In this document: piece by piece, positions 1-14,722 of the stretch | Position numbering within the stretch: position 1 is the first letter of the stretch | How the letters are laid out: each line of letters starts with the position of its first letter | NCBI RefSeq assembly: GCF_913063425.1 | Contig: NZ_CAJXYK010000004.1 | Location: 120,370 to 184,369, forward strand | Length of the DNA stretch: 64,000 nucleotides | Reading direction: 5' to 3' | Source of the DNA: an uncultured Thiohalocapsa sp. | Lineage (GTDB): Bacteria > Pseudomonadota > Gammaproteobacteria > Chromatiales > Chromatiaceae | Translations under genes and position numbers: made by a program | The notes under the pieces: model-generated | Told to the model about the DNA's origin: nothing | Database searches by the model: none | Seen by the model: only the letters and a program-made list of their open reading frames with translations

Positions 1-325
1 GCGTTCCGAGCCCGAGCCGGACCTGATGCTGCTGCGCCCGCGCGAGGATTTCTACGAAGGCGCCAACCCGACGCCGGCGGACACGCTCCTGGTGATCGAG
101 ATCGGCGACAGCTCGTTGCGCTACGACCGGGAGGTGAAGGTGCCGCTGTATGCCGGCCACGGAGTACCGGAGGTTTGGCTGGTGGATCTGCGGCAACGGC
201 GCCTGGAGATCTATCGGGAGCCCGGTCCCGACGGCTACCGGCTGATGCTGCGGCCCGACGCCAGCGAGGTCATCACGCCGGCGCTGTTGCCGGGCCTGCG
301 CATCGCCGTCGCGGACATCTGGTAG
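1..325 (+). CDS. Uma2 family endonuclease (DUF820), C-terminal part, truncated by window start
   Basis: Frame is open to the window edge; LLVIEIGDSSLRYDREVKVPLYAGHGVPEVWLVDL is typical of the Uma2/DUF820 core. Confidence 0.8.
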   Translation, partial: RSEPEPDLMLLRPREDFYEGANPTPADTLLVIEIGDSSLRYDREVKVPLYAGHGVPEVWLVDLRQRRLEIYREPGPDGYRLMLRPDASEVITPALLPGLRIAVADIW

Positions 326-474: not shown

Positions 475-1323
475 TCAACCCCGTCCCCCGCGGCTGATGC
501 GCGCGAGCGCCCAGTCCAGCGCCCGGGTGTTGAGCAGGCGCCTGAGTGTGCCCATGAGATGGGTCGGAAAGGTCACGTAGTAGCGCGGGCGTGGCCGCGG
601 ACTCTCCAGCGCATGCACCAGCTTCTTCAGCACCGCCTCCGGCGGCAGCGTGAAGGGCTGGGCCGGGCCCTCGGTGGTGAGCCGCGCCTCCATGCGCCGA
701 TAGGTGGCCCGGTGCACGCTGTGCTCGGCGTCGATGGTGCGCCGGTAGACCGCATGGGCATTGTCGCGGAAGCGGCTCAGGATGGGGCCGGGCTCGATCA
801 GGCTCACGTGGATGCCGCTGCCCGCCAGCTCCAGCCGCAGGGTGTCCGTGAGCCCTTCCAGCGCGAATTTGCTCGCCACATAGGCGCCGCGGTATGGCAG
901 CGCGATGAGCCCGAGCACGGAGCTGTTCTGCACGATGCGCCCGTGCCCCTCGGCGCGCATGAGCGGGATCACGCGCCGGGTCAGGTCGTGCCAGCCGAGC
1001 AGATTGGTCTCGAGCTGAGCGCGCAGGACCTCGCGCGTCAGGTCCTCCACCGCACCCGGCTGGCCATAGGCGCCGTTGTTGAAGAGTGCATCCAGACGCC
1101 CGCCCGTCAGCGCCAGGGCCGCATCCAGCCCGGAGCGGATGCTCGCGGGGTCGTCCAGGTCCAGCTGGACGGCGTCGAGGCCCTCGCCCTGAAGCCGGGC
1201 GACATCCGCCGCCCGCCGTGCCGAGGCGATGACCCGCCAGCCGCGCGCCGCAAGCCCGTGCGCGCAGCTGTAGCCGATGCCGCTGGAGCAGCCGGTGATG
1301 AGAATTGTCGGTGCTGTGGTCAT
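475..1323 (-). CDS. SDR family oxidoreductase
   Basis: ITGCSSGIGYSCAHGLAARGW nucleotide-binding motif, NNGAYG, YRGAYVASKFALEGLTDTLRLEL catalytic YxxxK. Confidence 0.88.
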   Translation of the reverse strand: MTTAPTILITGCSSGIGYSCAHGLAARGWRVIASARRAADVARLQGEGLDAVQLDLDDPASIRSGLDAALALTGGRLDALFNNGAYGQPGAVEDLTREVLRAQLETNLLGWHDLTRRVIPLMRAEGHGRIVQNSSVLGLIALPYRGAYVASKFALEGLTDTLRLELAGSGIHVSLIEPGPILSRFRDNAHAVYRRTIDAEHSVHRATYRRMEARLTTEGPAQPFTLPPEAVLKKLVHALESPRPRPRYYVTFPTHLMGTLRRLLNTRALDWALARISRGGRG

Positions 1324-1456
1324 GAATGCGCTCTTGTGCCGTGCCGGACTGCCGCGTAGCATTTCCACTCGACTTGGGCGATTTTGGTTGCGGGCTCAGG
1401 TAGCCGAAGAGATCAGCCCACTGGCGGCGCGGTCTGTGCTGCATCATGGTGGCACA

Positions 1457-1474
1457 GCCCACTCTCGGGTGGGC
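1457..1474. other. Small hairpin GCCCAC-TCTCGG-GTGGGC in the leader of the KAP NTPase operon
   Basis: Perfect 6-bp inverted repeat read directly, about 25 nt before the proposed ATG at 1500. Confidence 0.45.
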
Positions 1475-1499
1475 AGCGAAAGAAAGGGAACCTGATGGA

Positions 1500-4400
1500 A
1501 TGAGTGAGTCACGGGAATTGCTCGCCGGGCGCCTGAACGAGGCGCCGGTCGACGAAGCCCTGCTTTGGAAGCTGTACTGGGGCATGGACGGCGAGGAGCC
1601 TCAGGTGCTGACGCGCTTGGCAGCGGCTGTGGTAGGGAGCGAGCACAGCGGCCATGCCCTGATCTCCGGTCGCTATGGTGTCGGTAAGACCAGCTTCCTG
1701 CGTGCTCTGCTGACTCACCTTGAAAACCATCCGCTGGAGCCCCTTCAGCTCTGGCTCACCATGCCGCTCATCACGAGCTACACCAGCTCCTCGGCGGTGG
1801 CGGCCGTGATCGGTGCCATGGTCGAGAATCTCTGTGCGGACGCGCCGTTGGTCCACCCGGACGGCTGGCACCCTGACCGCGTCCCCGAGGACAATAAAGG
1901 ACTGGACCCAATGATCCTGCAGGCCCTGGAGGACCTGTGGCGCAGTGAAGGTCCCTTCGAGCCGGCGTGTGACGGCGGCAGCGGCAACGAGCCCCTGCGG
2001 CCGAACCGCATGGCCGGGGCCGCATCGGCCGTCAGCCGTGTCTACCGCAGCAACACCATCGAGCAGATGATCGACCGGCGCCTGGGCTGGGCACCGGACC
2101 GGCTGGGCACGCCGCTGGTGGTCTATCTGGACGACCTCGACCGCTGCAAGCTGGATGTTGCCGAGGCGGTAATCCAGCTGCTGCTGCGCTTTCGCAGCAG
2201 TCGCGCCGTGCGCTTCGTCATCGCCTGCGACCGCGAGCTGATGGAGCGGGGCGTCCTCGCATGGATGGACAAGAATGGTACCCATGCGGACGGTCATGTC
2301 TATGTCACGGCCAATTCGGCGCTAGAGAAATACCTGGACGTCATTCTGCGCCTGCCCAGGTTGAGTGAGCCCGCGGCTGAGGCCGCCGCGGGGGCGGGGT
2401 TTCTCGGTCTCCGCCCCGGCCTTCTGGAACTGCTGAGGGTGCCGCGAAAGGACTTCGGCACTGTGCCGGAGTCCGTCCTGGAGCGCTGCGCCGAGCCCGG
2501 TGGCGAGCGGCGAGCGCCCGATCCTGATCCCATACTCGCTGAGTACCTGCTGACCTGGCTCCTGGACGGGCTGGACGAGGATCGCCTGGTGTGGCGCCGG
2601 TCCGACCCCGACGACCCGCCGCCTCCGCCCGGCGCTCCAGCTCCGCTTCAAGCCCCTGAGGTGGCGGGCCTCGATGACGACGCGCAGGCTGCACCTGACA
2701 ATGAGGAGCCGCCGACGCCGTCGGTAGCGCACGGGGCCGACCACCCCGGTACCCCGGCTGGAGCGCCGCCGGCATCGAAAGAAGGCACATTCGAGGACCC
2801 GGCCAGTTTTCAGGATCCGAACAAGGCGCGGCCCGCGGAGAAAATCTTCCTGGCCAAGCTGACCCCCCTCGCCGAGGGGCTGCGCCAGCTCGTCTGTCTC
2901 GATGAGCGCCGTGGGCTGCTGCGTTTGCGGCCAGCCTATCGAGCCCTGGCCTCAGCGCTCACCCCGCGCCAGCTCAAGGCCTACCTGCGGGCACGGCTGG
3001 TCCAGAGCGGCGGCACTCAGGGCGGTCCGGCGGAGACGCTGCTGGAGCAGGAGTTCCATCTGTTCTGGCGCGTCAAGCGGGAAGAGCCTGAGATTTTCCG
3101 GTTCATTGCCGCCGCAGCCAATGCAGCGGGCTCGCAGACGCAGGTCGGCTTTCGGCAGCTGGCCTTGTTCTTCGATCAGCTACGCGCATTGATCGAGTCC
3201 TCGACCATTCTGACCGAAGACCGGCTGCGCGAGGTCTGGCCGGAGAACCACGAGGAGCGTGTCCTGCTGCTGCGGCTGCTCGATGCCCTGCACGCCGAGC
3301 AGCGCGGTGCGCAGGCACCGCGCGTCTCTGCACGAGGCACCGTCGCGCCGGCGCTGGAAGGCGGGCGCGACCCCGAGTTCGCGGACTGGGTGCGCGGCCA
3401 CTTCGGTCGTATGCCCCAGGGTGCCACCGTCGCGGAGCAGGTCTCGAGCTTTCAGGACTATGCACTCGCCAGACATCGAAACGGCGTCCGGGATGTCTTC
3501 CCCATCGTCGGTGAGTACGCGGATCGCTATCTGGAGCGTCACCTGCCGTACTTCGCCCAGTCCACCGCCACCAGTCTGTCGAACCTGGCGGTGCTCATCG
3601 ACGATCAGGCGCCGTTCGAGGCCGAGTGCGATGCCCTGTTCGATGCCGCCGTGCACCTCAATCCTCAGCACGGCTCGATCCCGCTCTACTACGCGGATTT
3701 CCTGACCAAGGCGTATGTCGAGGAGCCCAGGCGTGGGCGGCTGATTCCGGCGCGCTTCCCCGATGACGGTGTCATGCTCGATCGGTGCGAGGCGCTGCTT
3801 GCGACGGTGAGCGCCGAGGACGGTGCCACACGCCTGCACCTGGCTACCCTGCGGCTGCAACTGGACAAAGCGCGGGGTCTGCCGGATGCCGAGCTGATAC
3901 CAAAAGTGCAGGATGTCGTGGATGCGCACATGGGCCGGCTGCTGGTGGAGGCCCGGATTGCGCAATATGCCTCCCTGACCAGATTCGACAGCATGTTGGA
4001 CATGGTCATCGGCCGCGATTCCACCAACCTGCCGCGCAAGGGGACCATCCTGGGCGTCATCTGGGCCGTGCTGGAGACCTGCCGGGCCTCGCCCTGGGTC
4101 GCCGCCATGTTCGTCGCCAACAATTATGTGGGGCAGAGCCGGAGTAACAGCTCCGAAGAGCGGCTCGGGCTCAGGGTCAACCTCGGGCTCCTTGCGGACC
4201 TGGACATGCTCGCCGCGGCGCCGGACCGCACCGCTGAGATCTGGACCCAGACCCTGTTGACCTGGGCCGGGAACGCATCGGAGCGCGGCTCCTCGATCGC
4301 ATCCCGTGTGGCGCTCGGCCTGCTTGCGGCGCAGGTCTATGGCCGTGGAGGCGGGGCATATGCCGCCCGTGCCGCCGTCATCTGGCAGCGGATACAGGCA

Positions 4401-4670
4401 GACGGGGAGCCGGATAATAGGCGCCTCCTCGCTGCGCTGTCGGACAAGCATAAAGACGCGTTGGCAGCGCTGAGTGAGAAGCCGACGAAGCCCGCGGTGA
4501 TCGAGCAGGCTCGCGACGCCGTATTCCAGGACGATATTGGCACCCCGGTGACCGACAGCGATACCTTCGCCAAGCTGGCGAGTTGGCCCGCTTGGGCCGA
4601 CCAGCAGCCGCGGATCATGGCGCTGGCCGCCGAGCTTTGTGGCGCCCCCGGGGAGGCGGGCCATGACTGA
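1500..4670 (+). CDS. KAP family P-loop NTPase with proline-rich linker and long helical/TPR-like C-terminal region
   Basis: Walker A GRYGVGKTSFL, Walker B LVVYLDDLDRC, FVIACDRELMERG and ALEKYLDVILRLP as in KAP NTPases. The ORF track begins at 1446; ATG at 1500 is preferred. Confidence 0.8.
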   Translation: MSESRELLAGRLNEAPVDEALLWKLYWGMDGEEPQVLTRLAAAVVGSEHSGHALISGRYGVGKTSFLRALLTHLENHPLEPLQLWLTMPLITSYTSSSAVAAVIGAMVENLCADAPLVHPDGWHPDRVPEDNKGLDPMILQALEDLWRSEGPFEPACDGGSGNEPLRPNRMAGAASAVSRVYRSNTIEQMIDRRLGWAPDRLGTPLVVYLDDLDRCKLDVAEAVIQLLLRFRSSRAVRFVIACDRELMERGVLAWMDKNGTHADGHVYVTANSALEKYLDVILRLPRLSEPAAEAAAGAGFLGLRPGLLELLRVPRKDFGTVPESVLERCAEPGGERRAPDPDPILAEYLLTWLLDGLDEDRLVWRRSDPDDPPPPPGAPAPLQAPEVAGLDDDAQAAPDNEEPPTPSVAHGADHPGTPAGAPPASKEGTFEDPASFQDPNKARPAEKIFLAKLTPLAEGLRQLVCLDERRGLLRLRPAYRALASALTPRQLKAYLRARLVQSGGTQGGPAETLLEQEFHLFWRVKREEPEIFRFIAAAANAAGSQTQVGFRQLALFFDQLRALIESSTILTEDRLREVWPENHEERVLLLRLLDALHAEQRGAQAPRVSARGTVAPALEGGRDPEFADWVRGHFGRMPQGATVAEQVSSFQDYALARHRNGVRDVFPIVGEYADRYLERHLPYFAQSTATSLSNLAVLIDDQAPFEAECDALFDAAVHLNPQHGSIPLYYADFLTKAYVEEPRRGRLIPARFPDDGVMLDRCEALLATVSAEDGATRLHLATLRLQLDKARGLPDAELIPKVQDVVDAHMGRLLVEARIAQYASLTRFDSMLDMVIGRDSTNLPRKGTILGVIWAVLETCRASPWVAAMFVANNYVGQSRSNSSEERLGLRVNLGLLADLDMLAAAPDRTAEIWTQTLLTWAGNASERGSSIASRVALGLLAAQVYGRGGGAYAARAAVIWQRIQADGEPDNRRLLAALSDKHKDALAALSEKPTKPAVIEQARDAVFQDDIGTPVTDSDTFAKLASWPAWADQQPRIMALAAELCGAPGEAGHD

Positions 4671-6345
4671 CGCGGCGGACCATCCGACGCAGTCCGATAG
4701 TCTTCTCTGTCGGCATGAGATCGTCGCGCGGCTCGGCGGTGCGCTGAGGAAGGAGTCGCGGAACATCCTGCTGGCGGGGCCCTGGGGCTCGGGCAAGACG
4801 ACCCTGCTTGAGGGAGAGGATTTTGAGCGCGAGCTTGAAGAGCATGTCGCGGCAGGCCAGCGCAGGCCGTGGAAGGTGCTCACCTTCTCCCCCTGGGAGG
4901 AGACGGCACACCAGGACTGTGCCGCGGGCTTTCTGCGCTTCCTCGCCTTGGAGGTGGCGAAGGCGGAGGCGGCTTCAGACGTATCCCAGCCGCTCCCCGA
5001 GCGATTGGTCGCCGAGTCCAAGTACGTCTGGCAGGCCTTCCTCGATCTCGGCGTTGAGGCCATGCCGTACCTCAAAGACGCCGTCGCTGCTGTACCCGGC
5101 GGCACCCTCGCCTTCTGGCTGGCGCGGCTCACGGCAAAGCTGTACGCGCAGCGCGAGAATTCCCGGGCCGATGCGGAGGGGGCTCTGCCGCCACTGCAGA
5201 TGCGCGTATTGCGAGGGCAGATGCGGCTGCTGCTCGAGCGCCTGGCGGCCACCCACGGTGCGGAGCGGATTCTGCTGATCGTCGATGACCTGGACCGAGC
5301 CCGGCCCGACGAAGCGGTGGCCGTGCTGGACAGCCTCTATCACCTGTTCCTGCCCCAGCCCAAGCGTAAGCAGTCAGCGGGCAACGCCGAGGAGGCCTGG
5401 CCGGCCGGGCGTGAAGCGAAGATCGACAAGCGCTCTTGGCCGCGGCGGCTGCGCTCATGGCTCCGGCGGCTGTTCGTGCGCGGGCGATCCGCGGCTCGAG
5501 ATGGTCATCCGTTGGCATTGGACGACGCTGAAGCTGCTTCAGTTTCATCGCAGGATCCGGCGAAATGGCCGCTCAGCAGCATCTGGGCAGTGAACATCGC
5601 GATGCTGGAGGAATTTCTCTACGAGCACTACCGGCGGCAGCCTAGCTTCGACCCTACCGCCTATCTGGAGAAACTCTTCCACTGCCGAGTCAATGTGCCG
5701 CCACTGTTTCAGAGCGCTGTCTCCCAGGAGCCGGCCAGTCTATGGTCCGGGTCCTTGAGTGAGGTGAAGAAGTCCTTGATTGAGGCGAAGAAGAGGATTC
5801 AGGGTGAAGCGCCCACAGAGTGCTTGGACGACCCGCCGGTAGCGCTGCGCCAGGCCGAGGCGCTCACCGAGTGCTTGGACAACCCGGAGATGGCGTTGCA
5901 CCTGGCCAATGGGCTCAGCTACGCCGTGCTCGGCAACCTCCGGCTTTATGAGAGCGTACGCGGCGCTTGCCGTGACTACTGGCTGTTTCTCATCGAGCAC
6001 GGCAACCCGCCCGACCCGGCGCGACTGACGCCCGATCAGCTGCTGCGGGACGCGCAGGCGCTGACTCTGGTGCAGGCCTATCCGGGTTTCCGCGAAGCCA
6101 TCGCACTGTACGACGGCATGTGGCCGCATTTTATGAATCGAGTCAACGCACGGCTGCGGCAGGCGAGCTTCGAGATGGTCGAGAATCCGGCCTACCGCCA
6201 TATCGACGACCCTAACTTGCTGACGCTGCTGATGGACCTGGGCGCCGTTCGCTACGATCAGGCGTCTGATCGCTATGTCTCGATCCGCGACGGTCAGCAG
6301 CGGCTCACCCGCGAGCTGGGGGAGCTGCTGCGCGCGGGCTTCTGA
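4663..6345 (+). CDS. Second KAP family P-loop NTPase
   Basis: Walker A GPWGSGKTTLL, Walker B ILLIVDDLDRARPDEAVAVLD, WAVNIAMLEEFLYEHY and AYLEKLFHCRVNVPP. ATGACTGA overlap with the upstream gene. Confidence 0.8.
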   Translation: MTDAADHPTQSDSLLCRHEIVARLGGALRKESRNILLAGPWGSGKTTLLEGEDFERELEEHVAAGQRRPWKVLTFSPWEETAHQDCAAGFLRFLALEVAKAEAASDVSQPLPERLVAESKYVWQAFLDLGVEAMPYLKDAVAAVPGGTLAFWLARLTAKLYAQRENSRADAEGALPPLQMRVLRGQMRLLLERLAATHGAERILLIVDDLDRARPDEAVAVLDSLYHLFLPQPKRKQSAGNAEEAWPAGREAKIDKRSWPRRLRSWLRRLFVRGRSAARDGHPLALDDAEAASVSSQDPAKWPLSSIWAVNIAMLEEFLYEHYRRQPSFDPTAYLEKLFHCRVNVPPLFQSAVSQEPASLWSGSLSEVKKSLIEAKKRIQGEAPTECLDDPPVALRQAEALTECLDNPEMALHLANGLSYAVLGNLRLYESVRGACRDYWLFLIEHGNPPDPARLTPDQLLRDAQALTLVQAYPGFREAIALYDGMWPHFMNRVNARLRQASFEMVENPAYRHIDDPNLLTLLMDLGAVRYDQASDRYVSIRDGQQRLTRELGELLRAGF

Positions 6346-6443
6346 GACGTGGCCGACGAGGCGCTGCACGGGGATCGACACGTACTCGGGAAGCCTGCGG
6401 CAAATGCCCCTCGGCAAAGCTACGTGGCGGTTTTCAGCGATGC

Positions 6444-6467
6444 GGTGCGCCTGGGGCCAGGCGCACC
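6444..6467. terminator. Putative bidirectional terminator hairpin between convergent genes
   Basis: Perfect 11-bp inverted repeat GGTGCGCCTGG-gg-CCAGGCGCACC; no strong U tract. Confidence 0.5.
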
Positions 6468-6471
6468 CGGC

Positions 6472-6954
6472 TCAGGCTGAATCACCTTTCTGGTAGGTAC
6501 CTACCAGCAGCGCCTCCGCCAGCACATGGCCCGCCATGGCGGCCTCGAGCTGCGCCTTGGTGGGCTGGTCCAGGCCGCTCAGCACGGTGTCCAGCGCATA
6601 GAGCTTGTGGAAATAGCGATGCCGGCCGATGGGCGGGCAGGGTCCGCCGTAGGCCGGCTGGCCCCAGTCGTTGAGGCCGGCCTTGGCGCCGGGCAGGAGC
6701 TGGTCACCGCGAACCCCCGGGGGCAGGCCGGTGCTGTCCGGCGGCAGATTGTAGAGCACCCAGTGGACATAGGTCATGCGCGGCGCCGCCGGGTCCGGTG
6801 CGTCCGGGTCGTCGACGATCAGGGCCAGGCTTTGGGTGCCGTCCGGTACGCCCTGCCAGTCGAGCCGCGGCGAGGTGTCCGCACCCTCGCAGGTGTGCTC
6901 GCGGGGGATACGCCCGCCCTCGGCGAAGGCGGGCGAGGTCAGTTGCAGTGTCAT
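6472..6954 (-). CDS. YbhB/YbcL family Raf kinase inhibitor-like protein (PEBP)
   Basis: LTSPAFAEGGRIPREHTCEGADTSPRLDWQGVP, LIVDDPDAPD, YVHWVLYNLPPD, YGGPCPPIGRHRYFHKLYALD. Confidence 0.92.
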   Translation of the reverse strand: MTLQLTSPAFAEGGRIPREHTCEGADTSPRLDWQGVPDGTQSLALIVDDPDAPDPAAPRMTYVHWVLYNLPPDSTGLPPGVRGDQLLPGAKAGLNDWGQPAYGGPCPPIGRHRYFHKLYALDTVLSGLDQPTKAQLEAAMAGHVLAEALLVGTYQKGDSA

Positions 6955-7055
6955 GCTTGCCTCCGGTGGTGGCTCGGGGACGACGTAGTTTGAATCACCA
7001 CGCGCAAACCCTACCATGGGCGGGTTGATCGATTTCCCCCGGTGAGGACCCGACG

Positions 7056-13067: not shown

Positions 13068-13128
13068 GGGGTGAGGGGCGAGGCGCGAGGTTTCATCTGA
13101 GCATTGCCCGAGCAATGAAAGCATGATC

Positions 13129-13184
13129 CTCAGCCCTCAGCCCTCAGCCCTCAGCCCTCAGCCCTCAGCCCTCAGCCCTCAGCC
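13129..13184. repeat. Tandem heptamer repeat (CTCAGCC) x8
   Basis: Eight uninterrupted copies counted in the sequence, lying just before the second permease gene. Confidence 0.97.
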
Positions 13185-13227
13185 CGCCTGTGCATCACCG
13201 AGAGGAAATGGCCGACTCGCACCGATC

Positions 13228-14436
13228 ATGCGTGCAAGCGACATCCTGAGCTACACCACAGGCGCCGTGCTCGCGCGTCGCGGCCGCAGCCTGCTGACGC
13301 TGTCCGGCATCGGCATCGGGGTGGCGGCGGTGGTGCTGCTGACGGCCATCGGCGAGGGGGTGCACCGCTTCGTGCTCGCCGAGTTCACCCAGTTCGGCAC
13401 CAACCTCATCGCCGTGACCCCGGGCCGCACCACCACCATGGGCATGTCCGGCGCCATGATCGCGAGCGTGCGGCCCCTGTCCATGGACGACGTGGCGGCG
13501 CTTGCGCGGGTGCCGGACGTGGAGGCCGTGGTGGGTGTGGTGACCGGCAACGCTGCGGTGGAGGCGGGCCGGCGCAGCCGGCGCACCTTGGTGTTCGGTG
13601 CCGGGCCGGAGGTGCCGGCCATCTGGGGCATGCGCCCGGTCCAGGGGCGCTTCCTGCCGGAGGATGGGGCCGCGCGGCCGGTGGCGGTGCTCGGCGCCAA
13701 GCTGCACCGGGAGCTGTTCCAGCGAAGCGCGTCTGGTGGTGCGGCGGCGCTCGGCGCGCGCATCCGCATCGGCGGTGAGCCCTTCCGGGTCATCGGCGTG
13801 ATGGCGCCCAAGGGCCAGATGCTGGGCTTCGACCTCGACGACAGTGTCTACATCCCCGTGCAGCGGGCGCTCGCCATGTTCGACCGCGAGGGGCTGATGG
13901 AGATCGACCTGCTCTACGACCGCGCCGCGGACAGCGCCGTCGTCGCCGAGCGGGTGAAGGCACTCTTGGTGCAGCGACACGGCCGCGAGGATTTCACCAT
14001 CACCACCCAGGACCAGATGCTGGAGGTGCTGGGCTCGGTGCTGGACGTGCTGACCGCGGTGGTCGCCGCCCTGGGCGCCATTTCCCTGGTGGTGGGCGGC
14101 ATCGGCATCCTCACCATCATGACCATCGCCGTCGCCGAGCGTCGCGCCGAGATCGGCCTGCTGCGGGCGCTCGGCGCCGGCCGCGGCCAGATCCTGGCGC
14201 TTTTCCTGCTTGAGGCGACGCTGCTGGCGCTCGCCGGCGGCGCCCTGGGCTTCGGCGTCGGTGCCGGCGGCGCCTGGCTCATCGGCGTGCTGGTGCCGGC
14301 GCTGCCGACACGATTAGCCTGGGACTTCGTGCTGCTCGCGGAGCTCGCCGCCGGCGCCATCGGCCTCGCCGCCGGCGTCTTGCCCGCGCTGCGCGCCGCC
14401 GCGCTGGACCCGGTGGCCGCCCTGCACGACGAGTAG
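13228..14436 (+). CDS. ABC transporter permease (FtsX/MacB type), second copy
   Basis: MRASDILSYTTGAVLARRGRSLLTLSGIGIGVAAVVLLTAIGEG; AEIGLLRALGAGRGQILALFLLEATLL. The track start at 13123 reads through the heptamer repeat; ATG at 13228 is preferred. Confidence 0.88.
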   Translation: MRASDILSYTTGAVLARRGRSLLTLSGIGIGVAAVVLLTAIGEGVHRFVLAEFTQFGTNLIAVTPGRTTTMGMSGAMIASVRPLSMDDVAALARVPDVEAVVGVVTGNAAVEAGRRSRRTLVFGAGPEVPAIWGMRPVQGRFLPEDGAARPVAVLGAKLHRELFQRSASGGAAALGARIRIGGEPFRVIGVMAPKGQMLGFDLDDSVYIPVQRALAMFDREGLMEIDLLYDRAADSAVVAERVKALLVQRHGREDFTITTQDQMLEVLGSVLDVLTAVVAALGAISLVVGGIGILTIMTIAVAERRAEIGLLRALGAGRGQILALFLLEATLLALAGGALGFGVGAGGAWLIGVLVPALPTRLAWDFVLLAELAAGAIGLAAGVLPALRAAALDPVAALHDE

Positions 14437-14458
14437 CCCTGCGGGCGCCTGGGAGCGC

Positions 14459-14722
14459 CTGGGAGCGCCGACTTCCAGTCGGCCGCACCCACCGCGAGCC
14501 CCCTGGGAGCGCCGACTTCCAGTCGGCCGCACCCGCCGCGGGCTCCCTGGGAGCGCCGACTTCCAGTCGGCTGCCCCCGCCGCGGGCTCCCTGGGAGCGC
14601 CGACTTCCAGTCGGCCGCACCCGCCGCAGGCTCCCTGGGAGCGCCGACTTCCAGTCGGCTGCCCCCGCCGCGAGCCCCCTGGGAGCGCCGACTTCCAGTC
14701 GGCTGCCCCCGCCGCGGGCTCA
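14459..14722. repeat. Six tandem copies of a 44-bp unit carrying the hairpin CCGACT-tcc-AGTCGG
   Basis: CTGGGAGCGCCGACTTCCAGTCGGC begins at 14459, 14503, 14547, 14591, 14635 and 14679, an exact 44-bp period. Confidence 0.97.

What the first reader, a model, noticed from the sequence alone, without database searches (positions are those of the whole stretch)
1500..6345. Tandem, translationally coupled pair of divergent KAP P-loop NTPases
Seen directly: two ORFs on the same strand overlapping by ATGACTGA, both with Walker A (GRYGVGKTS; GPWGSGKTT) and the DDLDR Walker B. Established: KAP NTPases include PifA, the F-plasmid phage T7 exclusion protein, and are often implicated in membrane-associated or defence roles. 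Inference: the two may form a hetero-oligomeric NTPase module. The first carries a long helical C-terminal region, the second is compact, and neither shows an obvious inserted TM pair. I do not recognise this architecture as a named defence system.
Basis: partly seen in the sequence, partly recalled or inferred. Interest (0 to 1): 0.72.

Follow-up and report, generated by a model that had tools for sequence, protein, structure and literature searches.

The report
Rare mobile paired KAP-NTPase cassette
Two different ATP-driven switch proteins of the KAP family, one with a long helical tail, form a small gene cassette that recurs in distantly related bacteria at unrelated chromosomal sites; it may be an unnamed anti-virus module, but its function has not been shown.

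Summary
KAP1 (1500-4670, 1056 aa) and KAP2 (4663-6345, 560 aa) overlap by 8 bases. Each passes the curated Pfam cut-off for KAP_NTPase and has Walker A and DDLDR motifs; neither has a transmembrane segment. Three congeneric genomes lack the pair at this locus. In two of them the flanking genes, an SDR and YbhB, lie about 30 bp apart, so the cassette alone was inserted.

The pairing is not an accident of one genome. A Chromatiaceae MAG carries a decayed copy. Two genomes of another class carry distant relatives (24-31% identity); in one, KAP1 is split into a KAP gene and a separate helical-protein gene, followed by KAP2 with a 4-base overlap. All four copies lie beside different housekeeping genes, and all have lower G+C than their flanks (0.49 against 0.69 in one). 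Every KAP2 ends in Gly-Phe.

I read it as a horizontally moved, soluble, hetero-oligomeric NTPase module. Anti-phage defence is the likeliest role but is undemonstrated: no defence neighbours, no recognisable effector, no match to a named system (QatA 22.6 bits, cut-off 600). It is very rare. Structure models were too poor to help.

The parts
1306..6472 (+). Inserted segment: the whole cassette between SDR and ybhB
   Evidence: DNA similarity to congeners G160 (L054) and G158 (L055) stops at window 1296-1305 and resumes at 6473-6476; there SDR and ybhB lie about 30 bp apart. G+C of 1500-6345 is 0.666 against 0.694 in flanking genes.
1500..4670 (+). KAP1, 1056 aa: N-terminal KAP NTPase domain plus long helical C-terminal region
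   Evidence: Pfam KAP_NTPase 31.0 bits, cut-off 20; homologues in L020/L022, L065 and L071.
1668..1694 (+). KAP1 Walker A, GRYGVGKTS (residues 57-65)
   Evidence: Sequence.
2127..2144 (+). KAP1 Walker B region, LDDLDR (residues 210-215)
   Evidence: Sequence; conserved in L020 as DDVDR and in L065 as DDLDR.
2820..4670 (+). Helical C-terminal region of KAP1; a separate gene in L065
   Evidence: 24% identity, E 8e-21, to the 689-aa gene of L065; no Pfam family; AF2 confident only for residues 619-815, all helices.
4663..4670 (+). Overlap of KAP1 stop and KAP2 start, ATGACTGA
   Evidence: Sequence; a 4-base ATGA-type overlap at the same junction in L065.
4663..6345 (+). KAP2, 560 aa, KAP NTPase with a conserved C-terminal region ending in Gly-Phe
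   Evidence: Pfam KAP_NTPase 57.9 bits; homologues in L020, L065 and L071, all ending in GF.
4777..4803 (+). KAP2 Walker A, GPWGSGKTT
   Evidence: Sequence; GPAGSGKTT or GPWGSGKTT in relatives.
5272..5298 (+). KAP2 Walker B, LLIVDDLDR
   Evidence: Sequence.
475..1368 (-). Left flank: short-chain dehydrogenase gene (ancestral neighbour)
   Evidence: Pfam adh_short; syntenic in congeners.
6472..7017 (-). Right flank: ybhB (phosphatidylethanolamine-binding protein), ancestral neighbour
   Evidence: Pfam PBP; adjacent to SDR in L054 and L055.

Best explanation
A small, horizontally moved accessory cassette encoding a soluble complex of two divergent KAP NTPases. Shown: both NTPase sites carry the expected motifs; the two genes, plus the helical region as a KAP1 domain or as its own gene, stay together in four genomes of two classes at four unrelated loci; the cassette differs in composition from its flanks and is absent from this locus in three congeners. 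Inferred: the helical region is a sensor or scaffold; KAP1 and KAP2 co-assemble into a mixed, probably ring-like oligomer in an ATP-dependent way; an invader cue (phage protein or DNA) switches the assembly into a state that stops the infection. Anti-phage defence is the likeliest purpose. The output step is unknown, because no nuclease, NADase, protease or pore domain was recognised; direct action of the NTPase assembly on nucleic acid or on a host process is my guess.
For: Adjacency in 4 of 4 genomes that hold the helical region, in two classes; significant pairwise similarity of every part (KAP2 E 4e-36 and 1e-65; KAP1 N-part E 8e-24; helical E 8e-21); fusion/fission of KAP1 and gene overlaps at the KAP2 junction in two of them; empty site in congeners; lower G+C than flanks in all four, 0.486 against 0.686 in G683; protein-level constraint; conserved Gly-Phe C terminus of KAP2. 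Family precedent from papers: Tmn is a KAP NTPase that inhibits several phages (PMC11846954); QatA, a KAP NTPase, forms heptamers or octamers and binds DNA (PMC13279940).
Against: No phage phenotype; no defence genes beside any of the four copies; no effector domain; no match to a named system; not found in phages, plasmids or viral contigs, where many defence genes travel. Complex formation is not tested and the structure models were unusable.
Confidence: 0.45

Rival explanations
1. An accessory NTPase module with a non-defence role, for example stress, envelope or chromosome maintenance, that happens to be mobile among environmental Proteobacteria.
For: No defence neighbourhood at any of four loci and no effector domain. 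KAP is a broad family found in 93 of 299 sampled genomes, and its members are not all defensive.
Against: Sporadic presence, one other genome in 210 of the order, foreign composition, and decay in one genome suit a conditionally useful conflict gene better than a physiological one.
Confidence: 0.35
2. A part of a mobile element, such as a stabilisation or anti-competitor module of an unseen element, carried along rather than serving the host.
For: Clean insertion and foreign composition.
Against: No integrase, transposase, recombination site or replication gene beside the intact copies, and no terminal repeats beyond one 8-mer; no tRNA-end repeat in L065; no relatives in plasmids or viral contigs.
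Confidence: 0.15
3. Two unrelated KAP genes that are neighbours by chance.
For: KAP genes are common and the two are very divergent.
Against: KAP2 directly follows the helical region in four genomes of two classes at unrelated loci, with gene overlap in two.
Confidence: 0.02

Closest known systems
PifA (F-plasmid phage T7 exclusion protein, KAP family)
   Same: KAP NTPase domain; PADLOC PifA model hits KAP2 (41.6 bits, residues 37-230) and KAP1 (18.9 bits).
   Different: Similarity is confined to the NTPase domain (profile 37-203 of 720). Here there are two paired KAP proteins, a chromosomal locus and no PifC/PifB neighbour.
QatABCD defence system (QatA is the KAP NTPase)
   Same: KAP NTPase within an operon; QatA oligomerises and binds DNA (PMC13279940), a possible model for the assembly.
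   Different: No QatB, QatC (QueC-like) or QatD (TatD nuclease) genes; QatA equivalog score 22.6 and 18.4 bits against a cut-off of 600.
Tmn (KAP NTPase with two transmembrane segments)
   Same: KAP family NTPase linked to phage defence (PMC11846954).
   Different: No transmembrane segment in either protein; two genes instead of one; helical C-terminal region.
PDC-S20 (PADLOC phage-defence candidate, KAP-like, about 450 aa)
   Same: PADLOC models hit KAP2 (35.6 bits) and the L071 KAP2 (48.6 bits).
   Different: Short matches in the NTPase motifs only; a single-gene candidate by its PADLOC label (PDC-S, my reading), whereas this is a conserved pair.
Predicted conflict operons with KAP plus a second P-loop NTPase (Orc/Cdc6 pairs; EAD-KAP)
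   Same: Two P-loop NTPases in one mobile operon, one of them KAP (PMC10853773); KAP replacing a STAND switch (PMC8195603).
   Different: Both NTPases here are KAP; no Orc/Cdc6, EAD or TIR component was seen.

Membership tests
KAP NTPase family (PF07693) | Profile match above the curated cut-off | tested here: met
   31.0 and 57.9 bits against 20.
KAP NTPase family (PF07693) | Walker A and a DDLDR-type Walker B | tested here: met
   GRYGVGKTS / DDLDR and GPWGSGKTT / DDLDR.
KAP NTPase family (PF07693) | Transmembrane segments inserted in the NTPase domain (many members, not all) | tested here: not met
   Highest 19-residue hydropathy 1.57 in KAP1 and 1.27 in KAP2. Not an obligatory feature, to my knowledge.
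QatABCD | QatA equivalog score of at least 600 bits | tested here: not met
   22.6 and 18.4 bits.
QatABCD | Adjacent qatB, qatC and qatD | tested here: not met
   Neighbours are SDR and ybhB.
Tmn | KAP NTPase with two transmembrane segments | tested here: not met
   No transmembrane segment.
PifA | Full-length match to the PifA model | tested here: not met
   Only positions 26-227 or 37-203 of 720 match.
Anti-phage defence system (general) | Protection from phage | not testable with these tools
   Needs an infection assay.
Anti-phage defence system (general) | Co-localisation with other defence genes | tested here: not met
   By reading the ORFs, housekeeping neighbours at all four loci; only the direct neighbours were run against PADLOC, with no hit in the window.
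Anti-phage defence system (general) | Horizontal mobility and patchy distribution | tested here: met
   Empty site, unrelated loci, lower G+C than flanks, rarity.

The most novel reading that the evidence does not exclude
An undescribed anti-phage system made of two obligatorily paired, soluble KAP NTPases and a helical sensor region, in which the NTPase assembly itself is both sensor and effector.
Probability: 0.35. Interest if true: 0.75.

Novelty: new variant of a known kind. Interest (0 to 1): 0.5.

Why it matters
KAP NTPases recur in phage exclusion (PifA, Tmn, QatA), yet how they act is still unclear. A compact two-gene cassette with two different KAP subunits and no recognisable separate enzyme would be a clean test bed: if it protects, the activity should come from the NTPases and the helical region. 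The split-gene homologue gives natural domain boundaries for expression and reconstitution.

Tried and rejected
AlphaFold2 of KAP1 (2-row alignment, mean pLDDT 40) and KAP2 (35) gave no usable NTPase fold; the PDB fold search with the KAP1 model had nothing at E <= 0.001. Sequence search of the PDB: none. A genome-collection scan with the single sequence found nothing; with the two-row alignment it found only the known MAG. Plasmid tblastn: only weak KAP hits. A profile search in a further class (279 genomes) was empty, without a positive control there. A TPR identity for the helical region was not confirmed: a TPR-array profile scored it no better than shuffles, although a 65-position piece of the profile hit a genuine TPR protein at E 1.9e-4. 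A tRNA-end attachment repeat in L065: none. Chance neighbours and recent duplication were rejected. Literature searches found no described paired-KAP system in the open-access library; the DefensePredictor paper does not mention KAP in its main text.

Full report
What is in the window. The window is the last 64 kb of a contig in a 5.9 Mb genome. The only close relative of this locus with a public name is a Chromatiaceae MAG, which the genome search places in the same family as the window's genome, so I take the host to be a member of Chromatiaceae. Two ORFs lie head to tail: KAP1 from ATG 1500 to the stop ending at 4670 (1056 aa; an upstream ATG at 1446 would add 18 residues), and KAP2 from ATG 4663 to 6345 (560 aa). 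They overlap as ATGACTGA. Pfam assigns KAP_NTPase to both above its curated threshold. Walker A and DDLDR motifs are present in both, and no stretch is hydrophobic enough to be a membrane segment. The two proteins are too divergent to be recent duplicates.

The pair is an insertion. In two genomes of the same genus, G160 and G158, the order is gshA, SDR, ybhB, fmdB, aspS, with SDR and ybhB about 30 bp apart. DNA similarity to the window (81-84%) stops at window 1296-1305 and resumes at 6473-6476. A third congener, G154, and several other family members have SDR directly beside fmdB-aspS. So about 5.2 kb carrying just KAP1 and KAP2 lies between SDR and ybhB. The ends share no repeat beyond one 8-mer, and there is no tRNA in the window.

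The pair is conserved, and this is the main new evidence. In the order (210 genomes) only one other genome has it: G146, which is JACDZG010000160.1, the Chromatiaceae MAG. It shows about 50% identity over KAP1 and 40-68% over pieces of KAP2. That copy is decayed: KAP1 is frame-shifted, and KAP2 carries a tandem duplication of about 73 bp and a DDE transposase insertion. A KAP-family survey of 299 phylum-sampled genomes turned up one further pair, in G664. There KAP1 is two genes, a 439-aa KAP protein (31% to the KAP1 N-terminal part, E 8e-24) and a 689-aa helical protein (24% to the KAP1 C-terminal part, E 8e-21). KAP2 follows with a 4-base overlap (30%, E 4e-36). A profile of the helical region then found a fourth copy in the same class as G664: G683, with a helical protein running off the contig edge and a 458-aa KAP2 (30%, E 1e-65). 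In all four, KAP2 is the next gene after the helical region. All four KAP2 proteins end exactly in Gly-Phe, an unexplained conserved terminus that could be a docking tail.

Mobility. The four copies sit at four unrelated places: between SDR and ybhB; beside a pseudouridine-synthase-like gene; between a heavy-metal P-type ATPase gene and tRNA-Gln/ispE; and near leuS and an lptE-like gene (neighbours named from their sequences). G+C of cassette against flank is 0.666/0.694, 0.616/0.664, 0.519/0.594 and 0.486/0.686. This, with the empty site, supports horizontal transfer. No integrase or other element gene was seen beside the copies, apart from the transposase that broke the MAG copy. In G664's congeners the sequence after ispE/tRNA-Gln differs from genome to genome and lacks the cassette in the stretches read. 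Codon-position differences between the two Chromatiaceae copies (0.36, 0.32, 0.58 for KAP1) are typical of protein-level constraint.

How rare. One other genome of 210 in the order; no other of 369 in the class sample at E 1e-8; two others of 299 in the phylum sample, G664 and G683; the same two of 48 in their class; none of 279 in another class, without a positive control there. Nothing in plasmids beyond weak KAP hits or in viral contigs (pattern-based and therefore insensitive to distant copies); phage records were searched with KAP2 only.

How it probably works. Shown: two NTPase motif sets, no membrane anchor, a large helical region that can be fused or separate, constant adjacency, and mobility. 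Inferred: co-assembly of KAP1 and KAP2, with the helical region as sensor or scaffold and ATP-driven switching. QatA, a KAP NTPase, forms heptamers or octamers and binds DNA (PMC13279940), so a DNA-binding mixed ring is a reasonable model. Defence is the most likely role for a patchy foreign cassette of this family, but there is no phenotype, no effector domain and no defence neighbourhood. I give 0.45 to the full statement and about 0.75 to the narrower claim that KAP1 and KAP2 act as one complex.

Relation to known systems. It belongs to the KAP NTPase family by tested criteria. It is not QatABCD (score and partners fail), not Tmn (no membrane segments), and matches PifA and PDC-S20 only within the NTPase domain. 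I found no paired-KAP system in the open-access literature searched; a description in a subscription journal cannot be excluded.

Limits. AlphaFold models were poor because very few related sequences could be used. The TPR-like nature of the helical region is unproven. Prevalence figures come from samples, and sensitivity differs among the searches.

Noticed in passing
L021:11747-12031 into window 1-325: A Uma2-family (putative restriction endonuclease fold) gene lies between gshA and SDR in this genome, where congeners have about 60 bp; a second, separate insertion beside the same SDR. Another Uma2 gene is near the MAG copy (L020:10332-10910).
   Followed up: partly
L071:2996-3640 (-): Next to the fourth copy of the cassette is a coiled-coil protein with DUF3782 and weak PD-(D/E)XK similarity; it is not next to the other copies.
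   Followed up: partly
L020:4487-5674: A DDE transposase element has inserted into KAP2 of the MAG copy, which also carries a tandem duplication of about 73 bp: the system is decaying there.
   Followed up: yes
window 13128-13185: Perfect 7-bp tandem repeat (CCTCAGC, 8.3 copies) within the predicted start of an ABC-transporter permease ORF (13123-14436); a possible phase-variable or mis-called start.
   Followed up: no
window 14458-14721: 44-bp tandem repeat, 6 copies at 93% match, just after the permease gene; G+C-rich with an inverted core (GACTTCCAGTCGG).
   Followed up: no
window 5809-5917: A 51-bp imperfect in-frame repeat (2.1 copies) in the linker part of KAP2; absent from the relatives, so probably a recent expansion.
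   Followed up: partly
L081, L083, L084 and L085, downstream of ispE/tRNA-Gln: In congeners of G664 the region after tRNA-Gln/ispE differs in each genome (for example a 1047-aa response-regulator protein in G651), suggesting a variable insertion hot spot.
   Followed up: partly
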